From the NCBI RefSeq assembly GCF_026745355.1, contig NC_079202.1, forward strand, positions 41,783,646-41,847,645: 64,000 bases of DNA. The letters are read 5' to 3'. The notes under the pieces were generated by a model. It saw nothing but the letters and a program-made list of their open reading frames with translations. It ran no database searches and was not told the origin of the DNA. The DNA comes from Beta vulgaris subsp. vulgaris (taxonomy: Eukaryota; Streptophyta; Magnoliopsida; Caryophyllales; Amaranthaceae). How positions within the stretch are numbered: position 1 is the stretch's first letter; each line of letters begins with the position of its first letter. This document shows positions 41,451-55,203 of the stretch, in pieces. Both the position numbers and the translations under genes were made by a program.

Positions 41451-41515
41451 TGCCGCTTCACTGCAGAGAAATGATAAACGTATAACTGATAGATGCAACA
41501 AAACATCTATCAGGG
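41451..41515 (+). repeat. Left TIR of the large Mutator-like element
   Basis: Core AGAAATGATAAACGTATAAC through CTATCAGGG; inverted partner at 55141-55203 with two substitutions in the 49-bp core and small gaps farther out. Confidence 0.85.
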
Positions 41516-41779
41516 GTAATATAGTCTTTCAAACATTAAATTGGAGTTGTAACGTTCCATTGATGAATGGCTCATTCCCGTCTATTCCTAAGTTTGAAAT
41601 AGAAAAACAAAATTTAAAAGGTTTGATTAGACAGGGAGGAACAATTGGGAGAAGAAAATGAAATTGGGAGGAAAAACTTGAAGATTGGCGGTGATAGGAA
41701 GCAAAAAATTACCCCTGAAGAAGAAGAATTGAATATTCCACAGCAGAAGTGAATTTTCCCCAGCAGGTTGGTTTTGGAA

Positions 41780-44700
41780 ATGGTTGAAGGTAAGTTAAGT
41801 CTCGAAATTAATTGAGAAATGAAGGGTTAATAGGAATTTGTTGGTATTTTGCTGTAAATAGTTGTGGTTCGATTATATTGGAAATTCCTTTAATGTTCAT
41901 ACTTGACAATACTATTTTAAGTCTTAGTTGAAAATAAATGGAAATGACGGATTTTATGATGAAATTTGTTGCATTAAGCTGAATCTTAGTTGTTATTGCA
42001 TGTTAGTGAATATTGTGTTGCTAAATTGAATGTGATGCGGAAATGAGAATCCTGTAGTTAAAAATGTGTTGCTAAATTGAATGTAATGCGGAAATGAGAA
42101 TCCTGTAGTTGTAAATGAAGATAATTAATTTGAAAAAATGCTTAGGTGATGAAGGTGGTAATGGTAGGAAGTGGAAGGCGCATCGTAATGAGAAGGTAAC
42201 TGATGTTTTGTGTTGAAAATATGAATTTGGAATGGTAGATATAGAATAGTCCTAAATGATTTATACGGAATCATGTAGGGCAATGAGGAGGAAGAGGGGA
42301 GTGAAACATGGCATGATGAAGAAGAGGACAATGATGACGAAGTAACCTAGTATCCCCCTTTATGTTTGTTTATTTATTTAAAGGATTAAAAAATATGTTG
42401 AAGCATTGAATATGATCTTTTAAAGGTAATTGGACAATCGCGGAAGAGCGGCACAAGGGATAGGCTTCCTGATGAAGTATACAGGGTAGTTAGTTTTCTT
42501 GGTTGAACTACTTACGTTGATTTAATTTTATATGTAGTGAATTGTACTGAATGAGAGATTGTAATGGCAGGTTAATAGGATAAGTGTTGGTGGAAGGTTA
42601 AAGGAGAGTGGAAAAGTGATTACAAGGCGGCTGCAGCTTAACAACAAAAGGGTAAGGGAATGTTTGTTTTAGGCGCATTTTGAACCGTAAATGTGTAATT
42701 GTGTGCCTACAAAGTGTTACTGATAACAAAAAGTGAATTTCAACTGCCAAGTCGAGACATTTGGTCGAATCGCAAAGCAATTTGATGAGAGGAAAAAGCG
42801 TTTGGTAGCTGATATGGGGTTTCCTGGATTATTGCACTTTGGGGATAAGGGTTTGCCGAGGAATTTATATTATTGGTTGTGCACAATGGTAGATGTCAAG
42901 AGGAGGGTACTGGTGTTGAAAGATGGGTTGGAATTCCCTCTATCGAAGATAAAAGTCCACTGGGTACTTGGTATCCCCATTGGTCCGAGGCATGTACCTA
43001 AAGTTTGTGAGGATGATGCGATGGAGAATGAAGTTGCAAGACTGTGCGAATCATTTGTTACGCAATGCCCGTCTGGTCCTAGGGGAGTTACGTTGAAGAC
43101 AATTATGGAAGTTATTGAGGGGCCTGTTGAAGATGACCCAGAATTCAAGAAGGCATTTATGATGATGGCGGTAAATGATGTGATTGCCCGGACAAGTTGT
43201 CATCGAATATCTGTGAAGATGCTCCCAGTTGTAAGTGTTGCAGAGAGGGCAAAAGAATACGATTGGTGTAGTTTTTTTGTTTGACCATCTTATAAAATGT
43301 GTTGGAAATTTTGCGAAAAGGTTTTACACCGATGGATTTGCGAAATACTGCGGCGGTTGCATAATATTTTTGGCGGTATGTTTTGTTTTTTCATACAGTT
43401 GACAATATGTTTTTTCATATAGGCATTCTCTATTATGTAAACCCAAGTATTATATGATAATATGTTTTTTCATATAGCCATTATTTATTATGTAAACCTA
43501 GGTGTTATACCTTGATCGGTTGAGGAGGAACCCTGTATCGTGGGGAGTTTTTCCACGAATGAAAGGGTGGACGAAGGAGGATATATACGTTGCAAAGAAA
43601 GATGATAGGAAAGCATCAGGTGATTATGGTGCCCTCGGGGTAAGTAGTTTATATATATGTATGTGTTTTGTTTTGTTATTGATTGTCAGTAGCTGGAATA
43701 AGATATGTTGTGTTTATCAAAATTTGCAGTGTGTGGATGTTGCGTACGGGGAACGTAATCCTTTGGAAGCGAGGGATAAGATGCCTGAATCCTATGAAGT
43801 GGATCCCCAGATAGTATCTAATTGTGGAACAACACGTAAGAGAAAAGGGGCCTTGAAGGGGAGACGTAGAGGAAACTCTAAATTAAATCCTTATTAGTAT
43901 AAGTTGCGCAAGGAAAAAGGCAGTAGTAATGGAAGGGAAATGCAAAAGGATGGAAATGCAGAAGGTATAGGTACGTGCACATCTGCACCAACATCACCTC
44001 CATCATTGAGGAGTCGCCAACAGTCAGAGGTGGAGGAACCTGATGATTGTGCATCACCATATGCACCCCCAGGATTTGAAAATGTTTATGTAAATGGGAA
44101 TTTGCAATTAAATGTGGGTGCATTTGGAGACTTAAGTAGTAATAATACTCTGATAGGTTCCATGGAAGCACAACTAGAGAAGGTGGTGGGTAAGTGTAAG
44201 TATGGTTCGGTAATAATGGAGGCACCCATTTTAGGTATGGCAGTATTAGAGGGTTTGAAGTACAGTTGGAGGAAAATGAAGGAGGTTGAAGAAATAAGTG
44301 AAGATGAAGATAATGAAAGGAGGTCGTGTTCTAATGGAGGAGGTAATGCGAATGCGAATGGAGAAGCGCAAGTAGTGACTGAATTGGTTGGAGAACGAAG
44401 CCGTAAACATAGGAAGACAAAGACATCGGTTGTTTTGAGTGAGGAGTATGAGCAGACGTGGCGTCCTAAGATAACCAACAAGGATAAATTATTTGATCTG
44501 ATGTCGAAATGCAAGTAAGTAGTAATACAAGTAGATGAGATCCAATTATTTTTAAAAGTAGTACAAGGAATTATTTTTGAATGTAATATTGCAGGGGAGA
44601 TCCAATTATAATTGATGTCTCAGGCTCGTGACCGATTAGATGACAATGTAAGTCTCGTGCTAAATGCCAAACACATCAGTGTACGTCCTTTAAATGACAA

Positions 44701-45825
44701 TTTTATGTTGGCCTGGTGTTCTCTGTGTAGTATGTTCGAGTAGTTGCATGTCTATATGTCAAAGTCTAGGGACGGCGATTTGGAAGTAGAAGTAGGAGGT
44801 TGATGCTGGATCCGACATTCGCGATCAGTTATGTAATGTGGTTAGTTAGTGTAATAACAACAAAGATGCAAGTAACTCCTTAATACATAAATGTTTTTCC
44901 ATGTAGATAAGAGTGTTGCAAGTAGAAGGAGACAACTGGGAAAGTGTCGATAGGATTATCCAGTCGTGCATCAAGAACACGGAAGTTCCTTCATCTGTTA
45001 GGATAAGTGTGGTATGTACAAACTCATAACCCTTTGACAACGAAGAAGATGGAATATTGAAATGTTCAGAAACTCATTTACAGGTTTTTGTCCCTGTTAT
45101 TGAAGAAGGTCATTGGTGGTGTGCCGCCTTCTCGGTAAACAGGGAAGAGGTGATGATGGTCATAGACTCCTTGGAAACAAAAGCAGCTGCAGACATGCAT
45201 CACCTATCACTAGAAAAATTGGTACACTTGATTTCTACATTATGCTAATAATTACAAATATACATTATGCATTATACATTATACTAATATATGTGGACAG
45301 TGCCACGCGATGGACCGATATTTTAGTGTTGTCGACAGTTCCTGGGAGATTGGGAACATGAGGAGATGGCCGCGTTCGACGCTTAAAATGAAGCAGCAGT
45401 CGGACTCGTAAGTTTATCTTAATTAGTTTATGATGCCAGCCATTGATGTGAAATAATAATTTATATTTTGTTGTATTGCGGAGTTTACATGTTAGCTATC
45501 AAGCACAATGCTGATCGTTTTGTCGAGACTGTACAATTGGTAATTTTACGTTAATTCGTACATACATTCAACTAAGGGAAGAGGTTTATGTGTAAATAAG
45601 GTTGTAATATATTATGAAATGGCGCAGGGAAACATTATGGAAGAGCGTAAATGGTTGCTATGTGAGGATGTCATGTGCGACTTCAACGAGGCCCGCCAAA
45701 AGTGTGAAGGCTTTGATGTCCTCTTTGTGAGGATGTGCTTTACTGTCAAGTGTTGTACATTCGGTTGGGAATCGTTTGGTTATGATTTTTACATATTTGA
45801 ACGTTGGGATTGGGTTTGGTTATGA
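41780..45825 (+). pseudogene. Ulp1-type (SUMO protease-like) gene of the Mutator-like element
   Basis: A multi-exon gene on +. Likely exons: 41780-41789 (starts MVEG), 42146-42195, then acidic and basic exons near 42280-42340, 42427-42490 and 42572-42650, the main exon to about 43377 (ERKKRLVADMGFPGLLHF, then the VHWVLGIPIGP stretch), 43500-43639, 43730-44514, and C48-type C-terminal exons. The catalytic region shows HW in EEGHWWCAAFS (about 45107), Asp in MVIDSL, an upstream KQQSDS (about 45390), and Cys in CGVYMLAIKH (about 45477), separated by an intron whose acceptor is not clear. Breaks: one extra T near 43275 (frameshift) and TAG at 43895-43897. Ulp1-like genes are known passengers of some plant MULEs; the substrate is unknown. 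Confidence 0.7.
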
Positions 45826-46129
45826 TTTGTATAGTTTTTCACATTGGGATTGGGTATTGTTAGGCAGTTACTTTGAGTTCAGTATAATTGGGCTTTGTTC
45901 GCAAGTGTTTATAGTGTTGTACATTTGGTTGGGCAAATTATGGTAGGGTTATGATTTTTGCACATTGTGATGGCTAGTGTTTTGCACATTGGGATGGCTA
46001 GTGTTTTGGAATGGGACTAAGCATGGCAGTGAATTATCGACAATTTTTTGTTAGAATTTGATATTATTGACTTATGAGTTGTGTGCACTTTTTCGTGATA
46101 TTTTTGTTATGATACTTTTGTTAATATAT
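45826..46129. other. 3' flank of the Ulp1-type gene
   Basis: Contains short direct repeats (GGTTATGATTT, CACATTGGGATTGG, GCTAGTGTTTTG) but no coding sequence; probably its 3' untranslated region. Confidence 0.4.
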
Positions 46130-46735
46130 GTTGTGAATAATATTGAGTTATGAATAATATTTAAGACTGTTATGAATCCAAGAACAGAAGTTATGAATCC
46201 ATGAACAGAAGTTATGAATCCATGAACAGTAGTTGTGAATCCATGAACACTACCTTGAAACCAGTGAACACTTGTTATGAATCAATGAACACTAGTTGTG
46301 AATCAATGAACACTTGTTATGAATCCATGAACTCATATTGAAACTTGAATCCATGAACACAAGTTATGAATCAATATTGAGTTATATATAATATTTAAGA
46401 CTGTTATGAATCCAAGAACAGAAGTTATGAATCCATGAACAGAAGTTATGAATCCATGAACACTACCTTGAAACCAGTGAACACTTGTTATGAATCAATG
46501 AACACTAGTTGTGAATCAATGAACACTTGTTATGAATCCATGAACTCATATTGAAACTTGAATCCATGAACACAAGTTATGAATCCATGAACACTAGTTA
46601 TGAATCCATGAAGACTATTTGAGACTGTTATGAATCCAAGAACAGAAGTTATGAATCCATGAACACTAGCTGTGAATCCATGAACACTAGCTGTGAATCC
46701 ATGAACACAAGTTATGAATCCATGAATAGTGTTTA
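46130..46735. repeat. Minisatellite, GTTATGAATCCATGAACACTA-type units
   Basis: Units of about 22-24 bp repeat for about 600 bp. A higher-order duplication is visible: the block from TATTGAGTTATGAATAATATT (46139) recurs from about 46374 with the same order of variant units. Confidence 0.9.
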
Positions 46736-46742
46736 CGGTTGC

Positions 46743-46916
<174 letters not shown>

Positions 46917-47298
46917 CAATAATAATCTTAACTAGAAGACAGTAGTTCGCACGACGACAAAGTAGTTACAAAATAGTCGTTCCACGACGACGACGACAAA
47001 CTAGTTACTAAATACTTGTTACAGAATAAGTTTATCCCACGACGACGACAAAGTTCTTGTTCCACATCAAATTTGATAATCCGTTTTTTCTTCACGTTCT
47101 TCCTGCAAAAGCCTCTTCCTCATACAGGTGTTATGTTTAGACTATAATAATGCAACCATCAGTGACATTTTATGACATTAATGAGAATGGAAATAAAATA
47201 GAGTACGTTAATTAACTTATTCGTGCAATAATAATATAAAAAACAGTGATATGAAACGTACCTTGACATCAACCACGAATTGCGCGTGGGCGCCACCC
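46917..47298. other. Spacer right of the AAT array
   Basis: Holds a small cluster of ACGACGACGACAAA / AGTAGTTAC words (46950-47060). No gene is supported. Confidence 0.4.
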
Positions 47299-48110
47299 TC
47301 AGCCATGCGGACATCCACATCGACGTTGTTTCCACACCACATCACAACCACCCCCCCCCCCCCAAATTCCAACGCCGTTGACGCACTCAAACTTCATGGA
47401 CGTGCATGGTATTGCATGAACCTCCGCAAACTCATGGTCGGTCACCCTTGTTTCTAGTAGAACCATTACCACCGGTTGATGGACACCGAAGATAGTCCAG
47501 AAATGAGATACGAAACTAGGCCTTGCACAACCCCTAACACTCCAAACTAAAAGTGGGGTGTGTGGGGGTAAAGGGTTAAGCTCACTGATGCCCCCCCTTA
47601 GTCGGACCATAGTGAAGTGCCACTCCTCCTCTCTCCTAACGCGCGTACCAGAAAACATGGTTATTCGTATGTGTGACATTGGTGCCATGATGTGCATCAC
47701 ATGAAGGTCGTGTACGTAACAGGCCATGAGAACTTGAACGACCTGAGTTCTCATCAAGTATGTGAAACCTGATTCAGGAATGGTGAATTTTGGGTCCACA
47801 ATGTACCTAGCAAAATCAGGCACAATCGTTTTACTTCCTTCCTCATTTAGCCTGCATATACTCCAATCTATGAACACCTTGAATGCATCTAGTACCTTAA
47901 TAAGATCACTTATTTAGGTAGGTGACCAATCCTGGCCGGAGTCGATGCTTCTTACATCTTCAGGGGACTGTATAAAGTGCAATCAGGAAAATCACGTCGA
48001 GGATTACAAATAATCTTCCTCAGTTTCCACGGGGTTGCATCAACTTCCCCAAAATAGGAGTGGTCCCTCCAATAATTAATTTTGTTGAAATCTAATTCCG
48101 ACTTTCTAAT
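47299..48110 (-). pseudogene. Unknown coding fragment fused to LINE endonuclease-like start
   Basis: On - an open frame runs from 47877 to 47299. Its last part (LLVWSVRGCARPSFVSHF, VVMVLLETRVTD, then a Gly run where GFAGGIW-like sequence is expected) resembles the N-terminus of plant LINE endonucleases; a 14-base C run (about 47348-47361 on +) marks a slipped site. The first part (DAFKVFIDWSICRLNEEGSK, YLMRTQVVQVLMACYVHDLH) belongs to no family I recognise; related open sequence continues upstream to about 48110 (NYWRDHSYFGEVDATPWKL) with a stop. It could be a captured gene piece. Confidence 0.45.
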
Positions 48111-49094
48111 GGGTGGGGGATGGCATATATGGTTGACCTAGTTGAACATTCGGTGAAGGACCACCCTGTTGGTGGTTCCATGTTGGGGGAAAGGTTTGCA
48201 TATTATGCCATGAGTTTGAAGTTAGATGGTAATAAGTTTATTGTGGACATAAAATAGGATTCACTATGGAGTCAACATATTTGCAGTTAGATGGAGTAAT
48301 ATATAATAATATTACACACTTGTTTGCAGCGCACGAGTAATACCATGCTGAAGTTAAAAGAAATTGTATTCACCATGTACAAGATGAAAGAAATTGTGTT
48401 CACCAAATATACAAAAGTTGTTGAACGAACTATTAGGTATGAGTGTTGCATAATAGTTTGTACTCATGTAATTCGAATTATTTTGTCCGCATGTAATTCC
48501 AATTATTTTAGTTATTACTGGCATTAATATGAACGAAGTTAGTTTTCAAGAATAATAAGAAGTAAATTAGTTTTGATGAATTCTAGTTTTAATTATGTGT
48601 AATGTATGAATTTACATGAATATTCCGTTTTGTATTAATGTTTATCAATTATTGTATTACGTGTTTAGTTTATTTATGTCGTTTAACAATTATTGTTAGT
48701 GTATTAAGTACTTTATTAGTGTATTAAGTACTTTATTTGTGTATTAAGTATTTTACTACTGTATTAAGTAAGAAAAGGATGAAGACCATATTACGTTTAA
48801 CATCTTCAGTACTTTAGTTTTGTATTGTTTTTCTCATGTTTTGTATTTTATTTTATCAGTTTTTCATTACTATGTACAAAACAAGTACAAAGTACTTCCC
48901 AATGTTGTCGACATAAAGCAAATTTGCGTCTGCAAATGGGTTTGTAGTCCCATCAGTCGAAACCTACGAAGCCTATGAGATGCCTATGAGATGCCAACTG
49001 GATTTAATGGAAATGGGAAGTTGTTTGAAGTCCATTGTCCATTGCCCGTTGAACTTTTCTTTATATATACTTATTAATTTACGTTCAAGATTAT
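48111..49094. other. Spacer inside the Mutator-like element
   Basis: AT-rich with short direct repeats (TGTATTAAGTACTTTAT around 48695-48765; GAAATTGTGTTCACCA around 48360-48410; CCTATGAGATG around 48971-48992). No supported gene. Confidence 0.5.
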
Positions 49095-49151
49095 ATGGGT
49101 CTTAACCAACTAAGGCCCATTAAACTTTTAACAAACCCATCTTCATCAATT

Positions 49152-49998
49152 ATGGCAACAACACAACCCATCCCACAACCAATGCCAACAAACCTACTAA
49201 CCTTGAAGCCGTTTCAAAAGAAAATTATTGTGGGATGCAAAGGGATCGTCACCATGTTAGGAGGTGGCTTCCCAACCGGTATGATCATCGAGCTTTTTGG
49301 GGAAAGTGCATCGGGAAAAACACAAATTTGCTGACAACTATCATTGTTGTGCCAACTCCCACCATCATGTGGTGGTTTATTTGGATCATGCATTTACATA
49401 CATTCCTATAGCAAGTTCCTAGCAAAACGACTTGTTCAAATTGCAAATTACATGAAGGAGAACTATATAAACGACAGTAAGTACATTAACGTTGATGATG
49501 TAAGGGTCATGCGAGTTGATAATCCACCAGATATTTTGACGACAATTAAAACAATTAGTACATTATGCAACCAAGCCGAACAATCACCCCGCAACGTGCG
49601 TTTAATTATCGTTGACTCAATTGCATCTATTTTCCAATGTGCATTCAACACTAACCATGAAGGCATGACTACAAGGGAGAAACTGTTTTTCAAAGTAACA
49701 ACTGAGTTAGAGGAGCTGTACATAAGTACAATGCAGTTGTGGTATGCACTAATGAAGTTCAAGCTTGTTTCAACAACACACACAATACGAACAATATTCG
49801 TCTTTTAACATCTGGAATACAAGTGGAACCAGCTCTTGGTCTGTCTTGGTCCAACTGCATCAATAAACGGTTTTTGTTGGGATTCACATTACCAATGGTG
49901 AACGAATTCGATAAATCCGTACAATTATGTATCCCTATCTCGGAGATTGTATTACAAATTTTAAAATTACTAGAGGAGGGGTTGAAGATCTAATGTAG
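49152..49998 (+). pseudogene. XRCC3: XRCC3-like (RAD51 paralogue) retrocopy
   Basis: XRCC3 acts with RAD51C in homologous recombination. From ATG 49152 the reading follows plant XRCC3 order without introns: LGGGFPTGMIIELFGESASGKTQ-type Walker A region (key part GESASGKTQ), a TGA at 49332-49334 where Cys/Leu is expected, QLSLLCQLPPSCGGLFGS, Walker B-like LIIVDSIASIFQ, a one-base loss near 49725 before AVVVCTNEVQA, NNIRLLTSGIQ, ALGLSWSNCIN, another frameshift near 49925, then the C-terminal FKITRGGVED and TAG at 49996. No introns plus three lesions suggest a processed pseudogene; no poly(A) remnant is seen. Assignment to XRCC3 rather than another paralogue rests on ALGLSW and the C-terminus. 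Confidence 0.7.
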
Positions 49999-50201
49999 CA
50001 ATTACATGTAACATACTAAGTCTGTCATGAATTTCAATCCAGTGTTCCAACTAGCACTCTTTCTTCCAACTAGCACTCTTTGTCGAAGAACTCTCTGTAT
50101 TGAAAAACCTATGAGCCTACGTTAAACGAATTAGTATTACTCATAATGCTACACATAAAAACATAAACTATAATTAAGAACCAACACGATACTATTGGTA
50201 C

Positions 50202-53200
50202 CTCACTAGTAGGCCACAACTGCATCTCCAAAGGTGGTGATCGATGTACGTAATCCAAATCCTGTAATGAACAACGACCTTGCTCAATGCTAATTTTTTG
50301 TAATATCATACTTTTGCAACAACACCATTATAATTTTTTGCAAAACCATCAAGTTCAATAAATTTTAGTCTTACTAAATACCTGAGGGGGGATCTGCACT
50401 CTCCTTGCGTTTCACTCCTTTCCCTTTCCCCTTCTTAGGTGCTTGTTGCTTCTTCTTAGTACCTTCCTCATTCTTCCCTTCATCATTCTTTCCCTTCGCA
50501 TTCTTGGCCTTTTCAACGCATGACTTAATTCTACCTGCCCGTTTAGTTTTTTTTTTCCTATGGGGGTCTTCAACCGGGACAACAGGAACATCTATGAGAC
50601 TGCCTTCACATTCATTTGGGGACTTCTCTACCCTATTACAACTGCCAACTCCTACATAGCCATTTGCCTACTGCACCCATTGTGTGTTACCGACAGAAGT
50701 AGGAGTGCAATCTTTCAACCTCATACCAGCTATTTTCATGGAATGCTGTTCATTTAGGTGTATGTTCAGTACTTGGAGAGTCTCCAACACAGTGTGAACA
50801 TCACCATAGTTAGCCACCTTTAAGCAGATTGGGTCAAAAACCACCATCATTCTATCATAGTTCTGCACTTCATCTGTCTTTGAGGGATCGTGATAAGCTA
50901 CCTTTACCATTGTATGCTTCCGGAATACATCTTTCCGCCATCGTCGTAGTATGTACTTTTCAGGTATCCCCTTTATTTTCGACTTATTATATAACGATAT
51001 TATATGCCTACATAAGATTCCCGCAGACTCAAACAACTTGCATTCACTAGTAGAATAAATGCTATTTGCTGCGGTAATATTGCTGCGGTTTTACCTATAC
51101 GCAGCAATATAACATGCAAAAGAAAACAAAAAATAGAAATTGACAATATTGCTGCGGTTTCCCGCCAAAAATCGCAGCAATATTGTCTAACGGATACTTT
51201 TTAAAATAAAGTGGGGCCTTAAACAACAAATATTGCTGCGGTTTCCACGTAGGACCGCAGCAATATATTAAAATAATTTTCAAAATTATTATTTTAATAT
51301 ATTGCTGCGGTTCCTTATGAAAACCGCAGCAATATTGTCATTAGGGTTAAATAAAACTAAGGCGCGTTTCCCTCTCAGTTCACTCTCACTTGCTTCCTCT
51401 CACTTGCTTCCTCGGCCGTTTCATTTCTCACCCTCTCCTTCCTCTCACCTTCGTTTCCTCTAAACCTTCGTTTCCTCTAAACCTTCGTTTCCTCTCACCT
51501 TCGTTCCACAAAAAAAAAAATCACCTTCGTTTCCTCTAAACCTTCGTTTCCTCTCACCTTCATTCCACCAAAAATAAACATCAACCCATGGGAACTCTCA
51601 GTCCACAACCACAAACCTCACCTTCACAATTCAAGTTCTGGTGCGGTGACGCCACCAACGTCTCCAACGTCTCTCGTTGTTACTTGTCGGGAACCGCAAA
51701 CGCTCCAACCTTTTCCCCGTCGACGTGGTTTGATCTAATTTCGTCGTTACTTGTCGGGAACCGCAAACGCAGCAATTTCAAGGTCGGAAATTCGAAATCA
51801 AGGTGAACTTATTTCTTCAATTTGCTGTTTTTGTTTTGCAATTTATTCTGATCTAATTTCGATGAGGTTTGGCTGATGATTTTGTTGGATTCTCTCTCAG
51901 TTCACCTTCACCCTTCCCATTTCGTCGTCCTTTCTTCGTCGTCCGTCGTCGTTTCTTCGTCGGTCGTCGACGTGTTCGCATTAGAGCAGCGGTGGTTCGA
52001 TTACCAGATTCGCGCACATCAAATCATCATCAACCACCAACACAACGACAATGAACAATAGGATTGTGGATTTTTAGTTTTTTTAGATCTAATATTTGAT
52101 GTTTTTTTCGCTGTTTCTAGCAAGCAGATCTGAATTTCAGTTTCTTATTTTTTTTGTTTTTATTATAATTTTTGTAATTAGTAAGTTGTAATGTTGTTTT
52201 TTATATTAATGAGATCTATGTTGTTTTTATTGTTAGATTAATTGCATGGTTTTAATCTTTCAAATTTAATTTTGAAATGCAAAAAAAAAAAAAATTTTTT
52301 TTTTTGCCATATAAGTTCCTATTGCTGCGGTTTTGGCCTAAAAACCGCAGCAATATACTCTTTTAAATTGATAACACATAATAATATTGCTGCGGTTTGG
52401 CCTAAAAACCGCAGCAATATTATTAATACCTATTGCTGCCCTCTTAATTGATGCGCGCCCAAATCCGCAGCAAGAGGGCACTTTTTAACCGCAGCAAATA
52501 GCATTTATTCTACTAGTGATTCACACTTAGCTTTCGTCGTCTCCATGTCTATAAGAACAACATATTCGCAATTCCTATCAAGCGGCACCTCATTTTTAGT
52601 GTCCTTGCAAACCACCCAAACCCTATCCTCATACGTATGTTCAACCAAATCCTCTCCAACATCCTGCTTACCAGTCCATTCAAGGTATAACACCTTCAAA
52701 CATTCATTTTGTATCTCCCTAAATATAACATCGGTGTACAACATTTGGAGCACAATCTCCGTCTTGAAAGTTGTGACAGTAACACGGAGATACCTTGAAC
52801 TATTTGCATCAGCTTCCATCTCCGCATTTGCTCTTGATTCCATCGCGTTGCAATATTGTTCAGCAAACTCGCATAATTTTGTGGTTTTGTGAACATACCC
52901 ATCGAAAAAGTTATGGATGCTCTCACACCTTTGGGTTGTCTTCATTCCCGCCCAAAATAGATGCCTCATGTAAGCAGGAACCCACATATCTCTTTCCCGA
53001 AACAAACCTGCAGAGTCAAACTTTTAAACTAATGCAGGCACATAACATGCAGTACTACATTTCACTTTTCACTACTTACAACATAAACTCCATATCCTAT
53101 TTATAGTACTAAATCACGCATACACTACTTACAACATAAACTCCATATCCTATTGATAGTACTAAACCACACATACAACATAAACTATAAAATTTCACTT

Positions 53201-54837
53201 TATATCTAAATGTAAGTTGATAATTTGACTTAACAAACATACCTTGAAGCCATTCATCATCACTTAGCTCATACTTATCTATCGCACAAAGCCAACTCCT
53301 CTCAAAACTTCAGGCCTTACACTCTCGTATATGGCTTTCGTCAATGCTTCCTTCAAATCTTTGTAATTAGCATATGATGAACCAAGCTTCTTCCCAAATT
53401 TCATCATGATGTGCCAAATGCACCATCGGTGTACAGACTCTGGCATAGCATTGCGAAGGGCCTTCCTTATAGCAGCATCTTGGTCTGTCCATATTTCAAT
53501 GGGTGCCTTACCCCCCATGCAAAGCAACCATGTGCTAAAGACCCACTCATAAGTCTCTGCATCTTCGTGCGATACTAGCGCACAACCAAGCAATATGCTC
53601 TGCCCATGGTGGTTCACTCCAACAAAGTTTGCAAAAAGGTAATTCATAATCATTTGTCAAATATGTCGCATCGAAACACACAATGTCACAAAATTCTTCG
53701 TATGCCACCCTCGACCTAGCGTCAACCCAAAGCACATCCTTCAAATACCCTTTATCGTCAAGTCGATGAATGTGGAAAAAATTTTGATTGTCAGCTGCCA
53801 TCTTGTTAAAGTACATTAGCATCGCATTTGCATCTCCGGGCCCAAGTTTCAACTTCCGTTCCTTGGCAACCATATTCCTAAGATCTCTCTCTGTGATAAC
53901 CATATTCTCAATACCATTTCGGTCACGCGCTAAGCTATTATGAATCTGTGATATTCTAACGCCAACAACATGATCATTAAACAATCGCCTTCTCACGGCG
54001 CAACTCACCTCCTCCTTCCTAAACATGCTAATGAACCTCGATTTGCTTGGTGTTGGATTATGGTTCACATGATCCAAAACGATCCTCTTCACTACCCATT
54101 CCCCCCCTTCATTACATGCAGCATACATCATAACAGGGCAATTGCATTTCTTAGACTTCCTAATTGGCACTTCTACACCTTTACGTCCAACCGCAACCCG
54201 CCCCTTCAATGTTCGTTTCAAGTCAGGTTTACCATTACACTCACATTTCCAAGTGTAATTCCTAAACTCCTTCCTAACTTCTGCACCGCTAACCCCTTTA
54301 CCTTTCACACCTCCTTTCTTCAAAGACCCAGCCGCCCTAATTACACCAAAACCTTCCTACTTTCCATATCTCCTAAAATAATCATCAGCATATTCCCATG
54401 TGCCAAATACCATACCAACTGTAGGGGGTTGAACAACAGTGTTTGACCCACAACTATGAGGATCAGGTGTCTCAATAACAGCCAATTCATCATTATCAGG
54501 ACAATTCAAATCCTGCAAGGATTTTTATATAAGATCCACACTTCAATAGGACAACAACTTATGTATGGCAATTTAAATATTATATTTTCCCTAATTACTA
54601 TACCAATTTAATGCTACATGAAGTTATTACAATAGAAACAAATACGCTTTACAATTATTCGCTGCAAGATAAAATCACATTTTTTTCCTACTTCAATAAA
54701 TGAATTTATTCCTACCATTACATAATTAATTACTACCACGCAGATAACAAATTAATTTTATTACAAATTCTACTTACCTCCGGAAATGTGGGAACTGCAT
54801 CTTCACCTGCGCAAATGTCCTTCACTACCGATTCCAT
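50202..54837 (-). pseudogene. FAR1/MURA-type transposase gene, interrupted by a CACTA element
   Basis: FAR1-related proteins descend from MULE transposases. Exon 1: 54837-54778 (MESVVKDICAGE...). Exon 2: 54512-53243, with the FAR1 DNA-binding domain (YADDYFRRYGK, in-frame TAG 54359-54357, then EGFGVIRA; Cys residues in WKCECNG and KKCNCPV) and the MULE DDE domain (CFDATYLTN, IWTDQDAAI, HRWCIWHIMMKFGKKL). Two frameshifts are visible: an extra T near 53640 and a lost base near 53295. Exon 3 starts at 53007 (FRERDMWVPAYMRHLFWAG) and ends in the SWIM zinc finger, which is split by the CACTA element at 51045-52518 and resumes at 51044 (KLFESAGILCRH). Another TAG is at 50670-50668, then a Lys-rich tail to 50382 and a possible exon 50261-50202. 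Inactive. Confidence 0.85.
51045..52518. mobile_element. Non-autonomous CACTA element
   Basis: 1474 bp, TIR CACTAGTAGAATAAATGCTA followed by TTTGCTGCGG at both ends (at least 30 bp identical), 3-bp target duplication ATT (51042-51044, 52519-52521). Subterminal ATTGCTGCGGTTT motifs in both orientations occur at about 51075, 51150, 51230, 51300, 52320 and 52385. The interior (51360-52260) has CACCTTCGTTTCCTCTAAA tandem words and small open frames without recognised domains; no transposase. Confidence 0.92.
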
Positions 54838-55140
54838 AGCGCCCTAACTGCTAGATCAATGTGATTTTTGAATTAACTACGTCCTAATTAACAATTCTCC
54901 ATTCCTCATTTTGTTTACCTTCTCTATAAAATCTACAAAAATTCTTTATCTTTCATCTTCTAATTATTCTGGAGATTTTCTTATTTTTCTGGAGATTTTC
55001 TCTCACAAGCTCTGTTCTCTAGTTTTAATATACATATTGTTGTTGGTTAACGACGTTAATCGAACGTTACAAACATTTCATTCCCCCCTTTACTTATGGG
55101 ACCACACCAAATACTTTTATTGTGGATATATTTATTTAAT
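54838..55140. promoter_or_regulatory. Upstream region of the FAR1-type gene
   Basis: Between the start codon (54837) and the right TIR. AT-rich with two copies of ATTCTGGAGATTTTCTTAT-like sequence (54966-54998). Promoter function is inferred only from position; in MuDR-like elements the TIR holds the promoter. Confidence 0.4.
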
Positions 55141-55203
55141 CCCTGATAGATGTTTTGTTGCATATATCAATTATACGTTTATCATTTCTCCTTCAGTACG
55201 GCA
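55141..55203 (-). repeat. Right TIR of the large Mutator-like element
   Basis: CCCTGATAGATGTTTTGTTG through ATCATTTCT, inverted partner of 41467-41515; the outer part CTTCAGTACGGCA pairs with TGCCGCTTCACTG on the left. Confidence 0.85.

What the first reader, a model, noticed from the sequence alone, without database searches (positions are those of the whole stretch)
41451..55203. A 13.8-kb Mutator-like element with convergent Ulp1-type and FAR1/MURA-type genes
Inverted ends matching at 47 of 49 core positions frame a segment in which a Ulp1-like cysteine protease gene runs inward from the left end and a FAR1-type transposase gene inward from the right. MuDR has the same convergent plan (mudrA, mudrB). 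Ulp1-like genes are known MULE passengers, but one element keeping the transposase and a SUMO-protease-like partner as a two-gene convergent unit is uncommon and may define a lineage in which desumoylation assists transposition or escape from silencing. The functional link is inference.
Basis: partly seen in the sequence, partly recalled or inferred. Interest (0 to 1): 0.88.

Follow-up and report, generated by a model that had tools for sequence, protein, structure and literature searches.

The report
Beet jumping gene carrying RAD51-like recombinase
The segment is a decayed copy of a large plant jumping gene (a Mutator-like transposon of sugar beet) that carries, besides its transposase and a SUMO-protease-like gene already known from such elements, a RAD51-type DNA-recombination gene that many relatives in the genome still keep readable.

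Summary
Two 58-bp inverted ends (53/58 identical) bound a 13,725-bp Mutator-like element at 41466-55190, with a degenerate 10-bp target duplication (7/10). The genome is sugar beet. Eight large copies were read in full; seven have perfect 9-10 bp duplications. All eight carry the Ulp1-like gene (one only in part) pointing inward from the left and the FAR1/MULE transposase inward from the right. That pairing is not new: ULP genes in MuDR-like and Jittery-like MULEs are described from grapevine, melon, rice and Arabidopsis.

The same eight copies carry an intronless RAD51-paralogue-like gene (nearest solved structure XRCC3), and seven of eight an endonuclease-like ORF. Across the genome 32 of 55 Rad51-domain loci lie within 20 kb of a listed related transposase (chance about 0.2). 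RAD51 and transposase similarity fall together (Spearman 0.92, 17 loci). Of 30 RAD51-like loci held, 16 have open frames; dN/dS is 0.28-0.39 between two diverged groups. This points to a recombinase kept and co-inherited by a MULE lineage. A printed kochia element shares FAR1 and endonuclease genes; my searches found no RAD51-like gene reported in a transposon. Function is inferred; the window's own copy is dead.

The parts
41456..41465 (.). left target-site duplication, CTTCACTGCA
   Evidence: 7 of 10 match to the right one; same register as the perfect duplications of other copies
41466..41523 (+). left terminal inverted repeat
   Evidence: 53 of 58 match to the right arm; 39 further scored matches in the genome
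42727..45539 (+). Ulp1-like protease gene in several pieces (42727-43275, 43280-43642, 44054-44740, 44895-45221, 45301-45408, 45477-45539); broken: frame change near 43275, acceptor-side stretch before the cysteine exon missing
   Evidence: Peptidase_C48 13.5-14.7 bits here and 23.5 bits in copy C9
47302..47913 (-). ORFx, endonuclease/exonuclease/phosphatase-like start (motifs WSVRG ... ETR; likeness recalled from LINE endonucleases and by analogy with the kochia element), no Pfam hit
   Evidence: 7 of 8 elements, same orientation; no family for it or three relatives; kochia parallel
49152..49990 (+). RAD51-paralogue-like (XRCC3-type) gene, no intron; broken by a stop codon (49332-49334) and a later frame change near 49710
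   Evidence: Pfam Rad51 3.3e-9 and 1.3e-6 for two pieces; PDB matches RAD51 homolog 2 and XRCC3; 8 of 8 copies hold it; stop
50548..54837 (-). FAR1/MULE transposase gene; broken by frame changes near 53630 and 53305 and interrupted by the insert below
   Evidence: the annotated beet protein P0006 matches these exons, its last 106 residues without a difference
51045..52518 (.). nested CACTA-type non-autonomous element (32-bp perfect inverted ends, 3-bp duplication ATT) in the stretch of the transposase gene that reads as its SWIM region
   Evidence: absent from copies C6A and C9, whose alignment to the window resumes from 51047 at 52519
55133..55190 (-). right terminal inverted repeat
55191..55200 (.). 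right target-site duplication, CTTCAGTACG

Best explanation
The segment is an old, inactive copy of a large FAR1-type Mutator-like transposon family of sugar beet. Shown: inverted ends, 9-10 bp target duplications, FAR1/MULE transposase, Ulp1-like gene, endonuclease-like ORF and a RAD51-paralogue-like gene, in a fixed order (Ulp1-like forward, ORFx reverse, RAD51-like forward, transposase reverse). Shown: RAD51-like genes sit beside related transposases in much of the genome, diverge in step with them, stay open in many copies and show purifying selection between diverged groups. Inferred: the transposase cuts at the inverted ends; the RAD51-like protein (ATPase core with Walker motifs) helps the element, most likely by steering homologous repair of the gap left by excision so that a 14-33 kb element is copied back; the Ulp1-like protein counters SUMO-dependent silencing or processes transposition proteins. 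The stated confidence is for the anatomy and co-inheritance; for the repair mechanism alone it is about 0.35.
For: TIR family and duplications. Gene content 8 of 8 for Ulp1-like, RAD51-like and transposase; ORFx 7 of 8. RAD51/transposase linkage 32 of 55 loci against a random mean of 0.225 (maximum 2 in 200 draws). Similarity in step, Spearman 0.92 over 17 loci, 0.77 over the 12 outside the window's family. Open frames of at least 250 aa with a Walker A motif in 16 of 30 loci held. dN/dS 0.28-0.33 in six comparisons across one deep split (dS 0.63-0.68), and 0.37-0.39 in the two with the damaged-looking L039; neutral stop-free simulations at that distance gave no value under 0.49 (60 per setting). 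XRCC3 is the top solved structure for the three subfamily proteins tried.
Against: Function of the RAD51-like and Ulp1-like proteins is untested. The comparisons with low dN/dS at high dS all cross one split (L034, L036, L039, L050 against L044, L053), so they are not independent; closer pairs range from 0.20 to 0.99. Inside the window's family pooled dN/dS is 0.61 for RAD51-like, 0.58 for Ulp1-like and 0.58 for ORFx, near the neutral range, with decayed copies included, and pairwise dS of RAD51 correlates poorly with that of the transposase (r 0.20) and of the Ulp1-like gene (0.06); C2B's RAD51 alignment holds 7 in-frame stops. One further large copy (left end C6:22079128) has Ulp1-like, ORFx and transposase but no Rad51 match was listed there. 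23 of 55 Rad51 loci had no listed transposase within 20 kb; some look like host genes, others may have transposases outside the 61 of 1101 candidates that one search scored. The window's own duplication is only 7 of 10.
Confidence: 0.8

Rival explanations
1. The RAD51-like and Ulp1-like genes are passengers: host gene pieces captured Pack-MULE style, carried along without serving the transposon.
For: MULEs capture gene fragments often; ULP capture is thought to have happened several times. Many copies here are broken, including the window's.
Against: Same position and orientation in 8 of 8 copies, open frames in 16 of 30 RAD51 loci held and dN/dS 0.28-0.39 across a deep split, similarity in step with the transposase over 17 loci.
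Confidence: 0.25
2. One reading: a transposase and SUMO-protease pair is the functional unit, and desumoylation aids transposition or escape from silencing; the RAD51-like gene is incidental.
For: Ulp1-like gene in 8 of 8 copies, one in part; VANC/KIU genes with Ulp1 domains act against silencing in Arabidopsis (review PMC13317346).
Against: The Ulp1-like gene shows weaker constraint (window copy against the others 0.44-0.52) than the transposase (0.19-0.41); its catalytic region is damaged in the window copy; nothing here tests SUMO.
Confidence: 0.15
3. The inverted segments are chance or unrelated retrotransposon sequence and the genes merely neighbours.
For: The window's target duplication is imperfect (7 of 10).
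Against: The same ends, the same gene order and perfect duplications in seven other copies; random best match 33 of 58.
Confidence: 0.01

Closest known systems
Jittery-like (Jitvine) and ULP-bearing Mutavine families of grapevine (Benjak et al. 2008, PMC2528002; passages read)
   Same: Large MULEs (11.9 and 14.4 kb for Jitvine-1 and -2); the paper says some Jittery-like families carry a ULP gene downstream of the transposase, and that ULP genes occur in either orientation in TIR and non-TIR MULEs
   Different: No TIR or duplication is listed for Jitvine; which Jittery-like family carries ULP was not in the passages seen; no RAD51-like gene is mentioned in them
16-kb mobile element at the EPSPS locus of kochia, Bassia scoparia (Patterson et al. 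2019, PMC6808082; passages read)
   Same: Same plant family; FHY3/FAR1 gene with SWIM domain, an endonuclease/exonuclease/phosphatase gene, a gene assigned to the ubiquitin-like superfamily, and a fourth gene without known domain
   Different: No RAD51 gene is given inside that element (the paper's RAD51 is a neighbouring co-duplicated gene) and the second gene is called ubiquitin-like, not a protease; sequences were not compared here
KAONASHI / KIU VANDAL MULEs of Arabidopsis (reviewed in PMC13317346; also PMC2528002; passages read)
   Same: MULE with an Ulp1-domain gene opposite to the transposase
   Different: Those are non-TIR MULEs; the beet family has clear TIRs and a FAR1-type transposase
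MuDR (recalled; mudrA and mudrB also in PMC6446971, passages read)
   Same: Transposase plus a second gene, TIRs, duplications of the 8-11 bp class
   Different: mudrB is of unknown function and not Ulp1-like (recalled); MuDR has two genes, not four

Membership tests
Mutator-like elements (MULE) | MULE transposase domain | tested here: met
   Pfam PF10551 6.7e-25 in the window piece, 8e-33 in the near relative P0001
Mutator-like elements (MULE) | terminal inverted repeats | tested here: met
   53 of 58; pairs at 9 large copies
Mutator-like elements (MULE) | 8-11 bp target duplications | tested here: met
   of 8 large copies read, perfect 10 bp in 6 and perfect 9 bp in 1; the window's own is 7 of 10
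Jittery / FAR1 group of MULEs | FAR1 domain at the N end and SWIM at the C end of the transposase | tested here: inconclusive
   FAR1 22.3 bits (cut-off 28.1) and SWIM 15.6 (cut-off 19.6) in the window pieces; FAR1 18.8 in P0001; relatives such as P0011 list both domains
Jittery / FAR1 group of MULEs | position in a transposase tree | not tested
   no tree with reference MULEs was built
Ulp1 proteases (Peptidase_C48) | catalytic domain over the curated cut-off with ordered His, Asp, Gln, Cys motifs | tested here: met
   copy C9 23.5 bits (cut-off 20.7); the window copy only 13.5-14.7, not over it; GHWW, IDS, QQSD, CGVY in this order in 6 of the 7 copies that keep the region
KI / VANDAL MULEs | no terminal inverted repeats | tested here: not met
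   TIRs present
RAD51 paralogues (XRCC3 type) | RecA core with Walker A and B | tested here: met
   Pfam Rad51 113.6 bits for the C9 protein; GE(S/N)x(S/T)GKTQ and a hydrophobic-DS Walker B in 6 of 6 representatives aligned
RAD51 paralogues (XRCC3 type) | N-terminal domain and placement among plant paralogues in a tree | not tested
   the Pfam match begins at residue 24 of the C9 protein; best PDB match is XRCC3, but no tree with plant paralogues was made
CACTA elements (nested insert) | CACTA ends and 3-bp duplication | tested here: met
   CACTAGTAG ends, ATT on both sides; absent in copies C6A and C9

The most novel reading that the evidence does not exclude
A lineage of plant Mutator-like transposons encodes its own RAD51-paralogue recombinase, kept by selection through the radiation of the transposase, to bias repair of its excision gaps toward homologous copying (effectively replicative transposition of very large elements); together with an endonuclease-like and a SUMO-protease-like protein it forms a four-gene mobile system.
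Probability: 0.35. Interest if true: 0.87.

Novelty: new variant of a known kind. Interest (0 to 1): 0.7.

Why it matters
How Mutator-type elements repair the gap they leave, and so increase in number, is attributed to host homologous repair (recalled). A transposon lineage that brings its own RAD51 paralogue would make that testable by removing one gene, and would explain the many extra intronless Rad51-domain genes in the beet genome, which annotation may take for repair genes. An element with some of the same genes is implicated in gene duplication in a relative of beet (PMC6808082).

Tried and rejected
Chance or Copia origin of the inverted ends: rejected. Extension of the ends outside 41466: rejected. 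I first took 47302-47913 for a stray LINE piece; it recurs in 7 of 8 copies and beside RAD51-like genes of other subfamilies, so I treat it as a component. Ulp1 identity from the window copy alone was weak: Pfam 13.5-14.7 bits, no protease among the PDB matches up to E 10, none of 173 candidates at E 10 for the catalytic part; of seven controls (one reversed, six shuffled) two gave unrelated families at similar E-values. It was settled only by copy C9. A protein search with the whole Ulp1-like model found one relative, beet P0121. Single-sequence fold of ORFx: mean pLDDT 35, not used. Never answered: the Ulp1-like gene genome-wide (catalytic query; N-terminal query; Pfam Ulp1) and all MULE domains. 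dN/dS inside the window's family is blurred by decayed copies. Literature on RAD51 in transposons: 15 of 25 papers listed; 3 of 3; 12 of 155; 4 of 4; listings only, except passages of PMC6808082 and PMC6446971; the library is open-access only. Van Leeuwen 2007, Hoen 2006 and Sasaki 2022 are not held and are known here only through papers citing them. Passages looked up in PMC5240378, PMC5735166 and PMC10398659 added nothing on Ulp1-bearing MULEs.
Full report
1. The observation. In 20 Markov-random sequences of the window's length, one strand each, the best match to the left arm was 33 of 58. Ten bases on each side (CTTCACTGCA, CTTCAGTACG) agree at 7 of 10.

2. Which organism. The annotated sugar beet protein P0006 (Beta vulgaris subsp. 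vulgaris) fits this locus: its first 20 and last 106 residues match the window exactly, the middle piece has one mismatch and one gap. The contig of another beet protein, P0121, has the same length as contig C2 of the held genome, 56,942,840; that of P0006 (64,339,656) differs slightly from C1 (64,316,554), so the two assemblies may differ. The held genome has 569 Mb in 20 contigs and the window lies on C1.

3. Other copies. The left end gave 40 scored matches (40 of 101 candidates scored), the right end 37. Nine large pairs of ends appear in these lists: the window's, C2:23084148, C9:846788, C6:14368868, C3:42957234, C2:46230113, C3:30185080, C6:6954656 and C11:56613895. Eight were held in full (and the window), 13.7 to 33.1 kb long. 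Of these eight, six have perfect 10-bp duplications, C9 a perfect 9-bp one, and the window 7 of 10. A 315-bp copy with the same ends (C12) also has a perfect 10-bp duplication.

4. Gene content. With tblastn 8 of 8 carry the Ulp1-like gene reading inward from the left (C2A only its first 262 model residues), the transposase reading inward from the right, and between them a RAD51-like gene on the plus strand. ORFx, on the minus strand between the Ulp1-like and RAD51-like genes, is in 7 of 8 (not C3B). For the C11 copy, of which only pieces were held, the start of the Ulp1-like gene, an open RAD51-like frame and the transposase were seen. One more left end, C6:22079128, is followed by Ulp1-like, ORFx and, 12 kb on, a transposase of 92% identity, but no Rad51 match was listed in that interval: a counter-example.

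5. The Ulp1-like gene. Motifs GHWW, IDS, QQSD, CGVY appear in this order in six of the seven copies that keep the region; in C3A the first is read in another frame. The window copy scores 13.5-14.7 bits against Peptidase_C48 (cut-off 20.7); copy C9 scores 22.1-23.5. In the window the acceptor side before the cysteine exon, present in the six other copies compared, is missing, and the first exon ends in a frame change. The gene is broken here.

6. The RAD51-like gene. The C9 protein scores 113.6 bits against Pfam Rad51. Its best solved structure is XRCC3 (7.3e-33); the same holds for two other subfamilies. The Pfam Rad51 search of the genome gave 72 matches, which merge to 55 loci; one with six pieces looks like a multi-exon host gene (C11:51374236). 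Of the 30 loci held, 16 have an open frame of at least 250 residues with a Walker A motif. The window copy has a stop codon after the Walker A motif and a later frame change.

7. Linkage and co-inheritance. 32 of 55 Rad51 loci lie within 20 kb of one of the 51 transposase loci I took, and 33 of those 51 lie near a Rad51 locus; random placement gives 0.225 on average, at most 2 in 200 draws. One search scored only 61 of 1101 candidates, so linkage may be under-counted. Of the 32, in 26 the transposase is downstream and convergent (24 of these at 1.4-4.7 kb), in 5 it is upstream on the same strand at 6.8-12.0 kb, and in 1 downstream on the same strand at 15 kb. For the 17 linked loci whose RAD51 sequence I held, similarity to the window family's RAD51 protein follows transposase similarity (Spearman 0.92; 0.77, P 0.003, for the 12 outside the window's family). 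Transposase identities (best listed piece against P0001) of 90-98, 78-88, 68-73 and 63-64% go with RAD51 identities of 76-100, 57-59, 48-50 and 34-36%.

8. Selection. Pairs with dS between 0.02 and 1.5 were listed. Across one deep split (L034, L036, L050 against L044, L053; dS 0.63-0.68) six comparisons give dN/dS 0.28-0.33, and the two with L039 0.37-0.39; they share branches. Closer pairs range from 0.20 to 0.99, the three highest involving L039 or L053. Neutral simulation without stops gives 0.68-0.80 on average and no value under 0.49 at that distance, 0.86 on average and down to 0.47 at the short distance. Inside the window's family, decayed copies included, pooled values are 0.39 for the transposase, 0.58 for Ulp1-like, 0.61 for RAD51-like and 0.58 for ORFx. 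So the transposase, and the RAD51-like gene in its diverged groups, have been constrained; the Ulp1-like gene only weakly by this measure. Correlation of pairwise dS between modules inside the family is modest (transposase with Ulp1-like 0.56, with ORFx 0.66, with RAD51 0.20), so common descent of each copy's four genes is not shown copy by copy.

9. ORFx. Two motifs (WSVRG, ETR) recall the start of LINE-type endonucleases (recalled); Pfam gives nothing and the single-sequence fold is unusable. The kochia element of Patterson et al. 2019 has an endonuclease/exonuclease/phosphatase gene beside a FAR1 gene. The Bienertia protein P0031 joins a FAR1 transposase to an ORFx-like tail.

10. Prior knowledge. 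ULP genes in MULEs, including some Jittery-like ones and in both orientations, are described (PMC2528002). The Ulp1-VANC (KIU) link to anti-silencing is reviewed in PMC13317346. The MULE survey PMC6446971 gives FAR1 for the plant Jittery group, and the word RAD51 does not occur in its text. Searches of the open-access library showed me no report of a RAD51-family gene in a transposon; I saw listings, not whole papers. I therefore call the RAD51-bearing MULE a new variant of a known kind.

11. Mechanism. Most likely the element moved by cut and paste through its transposase, and the RAD51-like core protein, alone or with host RAD51 paralogues, promotes homologous filling of the donor gap. The association, the constraint and the motifs are shown; the activity is not. 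Passenger status is the main rival.

Noticed in passing
51045-52518: A 1,474-bp CACTA-type non-autonomous element with 32-bp perfect ends, ATT duplication and internal repeats of ATATTGCTGCGGTT sits in the transposase gene; two other copies of the host element (C6A, C9) lack it.
   Followed up: yes
47302-47913: Endonuclease-like ORFx; similar sequence also lies upstream of RAD51-like genes of other subfamilies (L029, L030, L034, L036, L038, L039, L040, L043, L045, L050, L056).
   Followed up: partly
L016-L017 (C6A), L013-L015 (C9), L018-L019 (C3A), minus strand of the element between the Ulp1-like gene and ORFx: A further small conserved frame beginning MALFLQMTKELREAG in these three of the five copies looked at (not seen in the window copy or C2A); a similar frame lies downstream of the RAD51-like gene in L033.
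   Followed up: no
46148-46932: 21-bp tandem repeats followed by a long TTA/AAT run between the Ulp1-like gene and ORFx; parts of the repeats align to copies C6A and C9.
   Followed up: no
G000:C12:25686995-25687309 and C6:8496872-8497255: Short elements (315 and about 384 bp) with the same inverted ends, likely non-coding derivatives; the C12 one has a perfect 10-bp duplication.
   Followed up: partly
L029-L058: Many single-exon Rad51-domain frames in sugar beet (16 of these 30 loci open over at least 250 residues) could be misread as host repair genes in annotation.
   Followed up: partly
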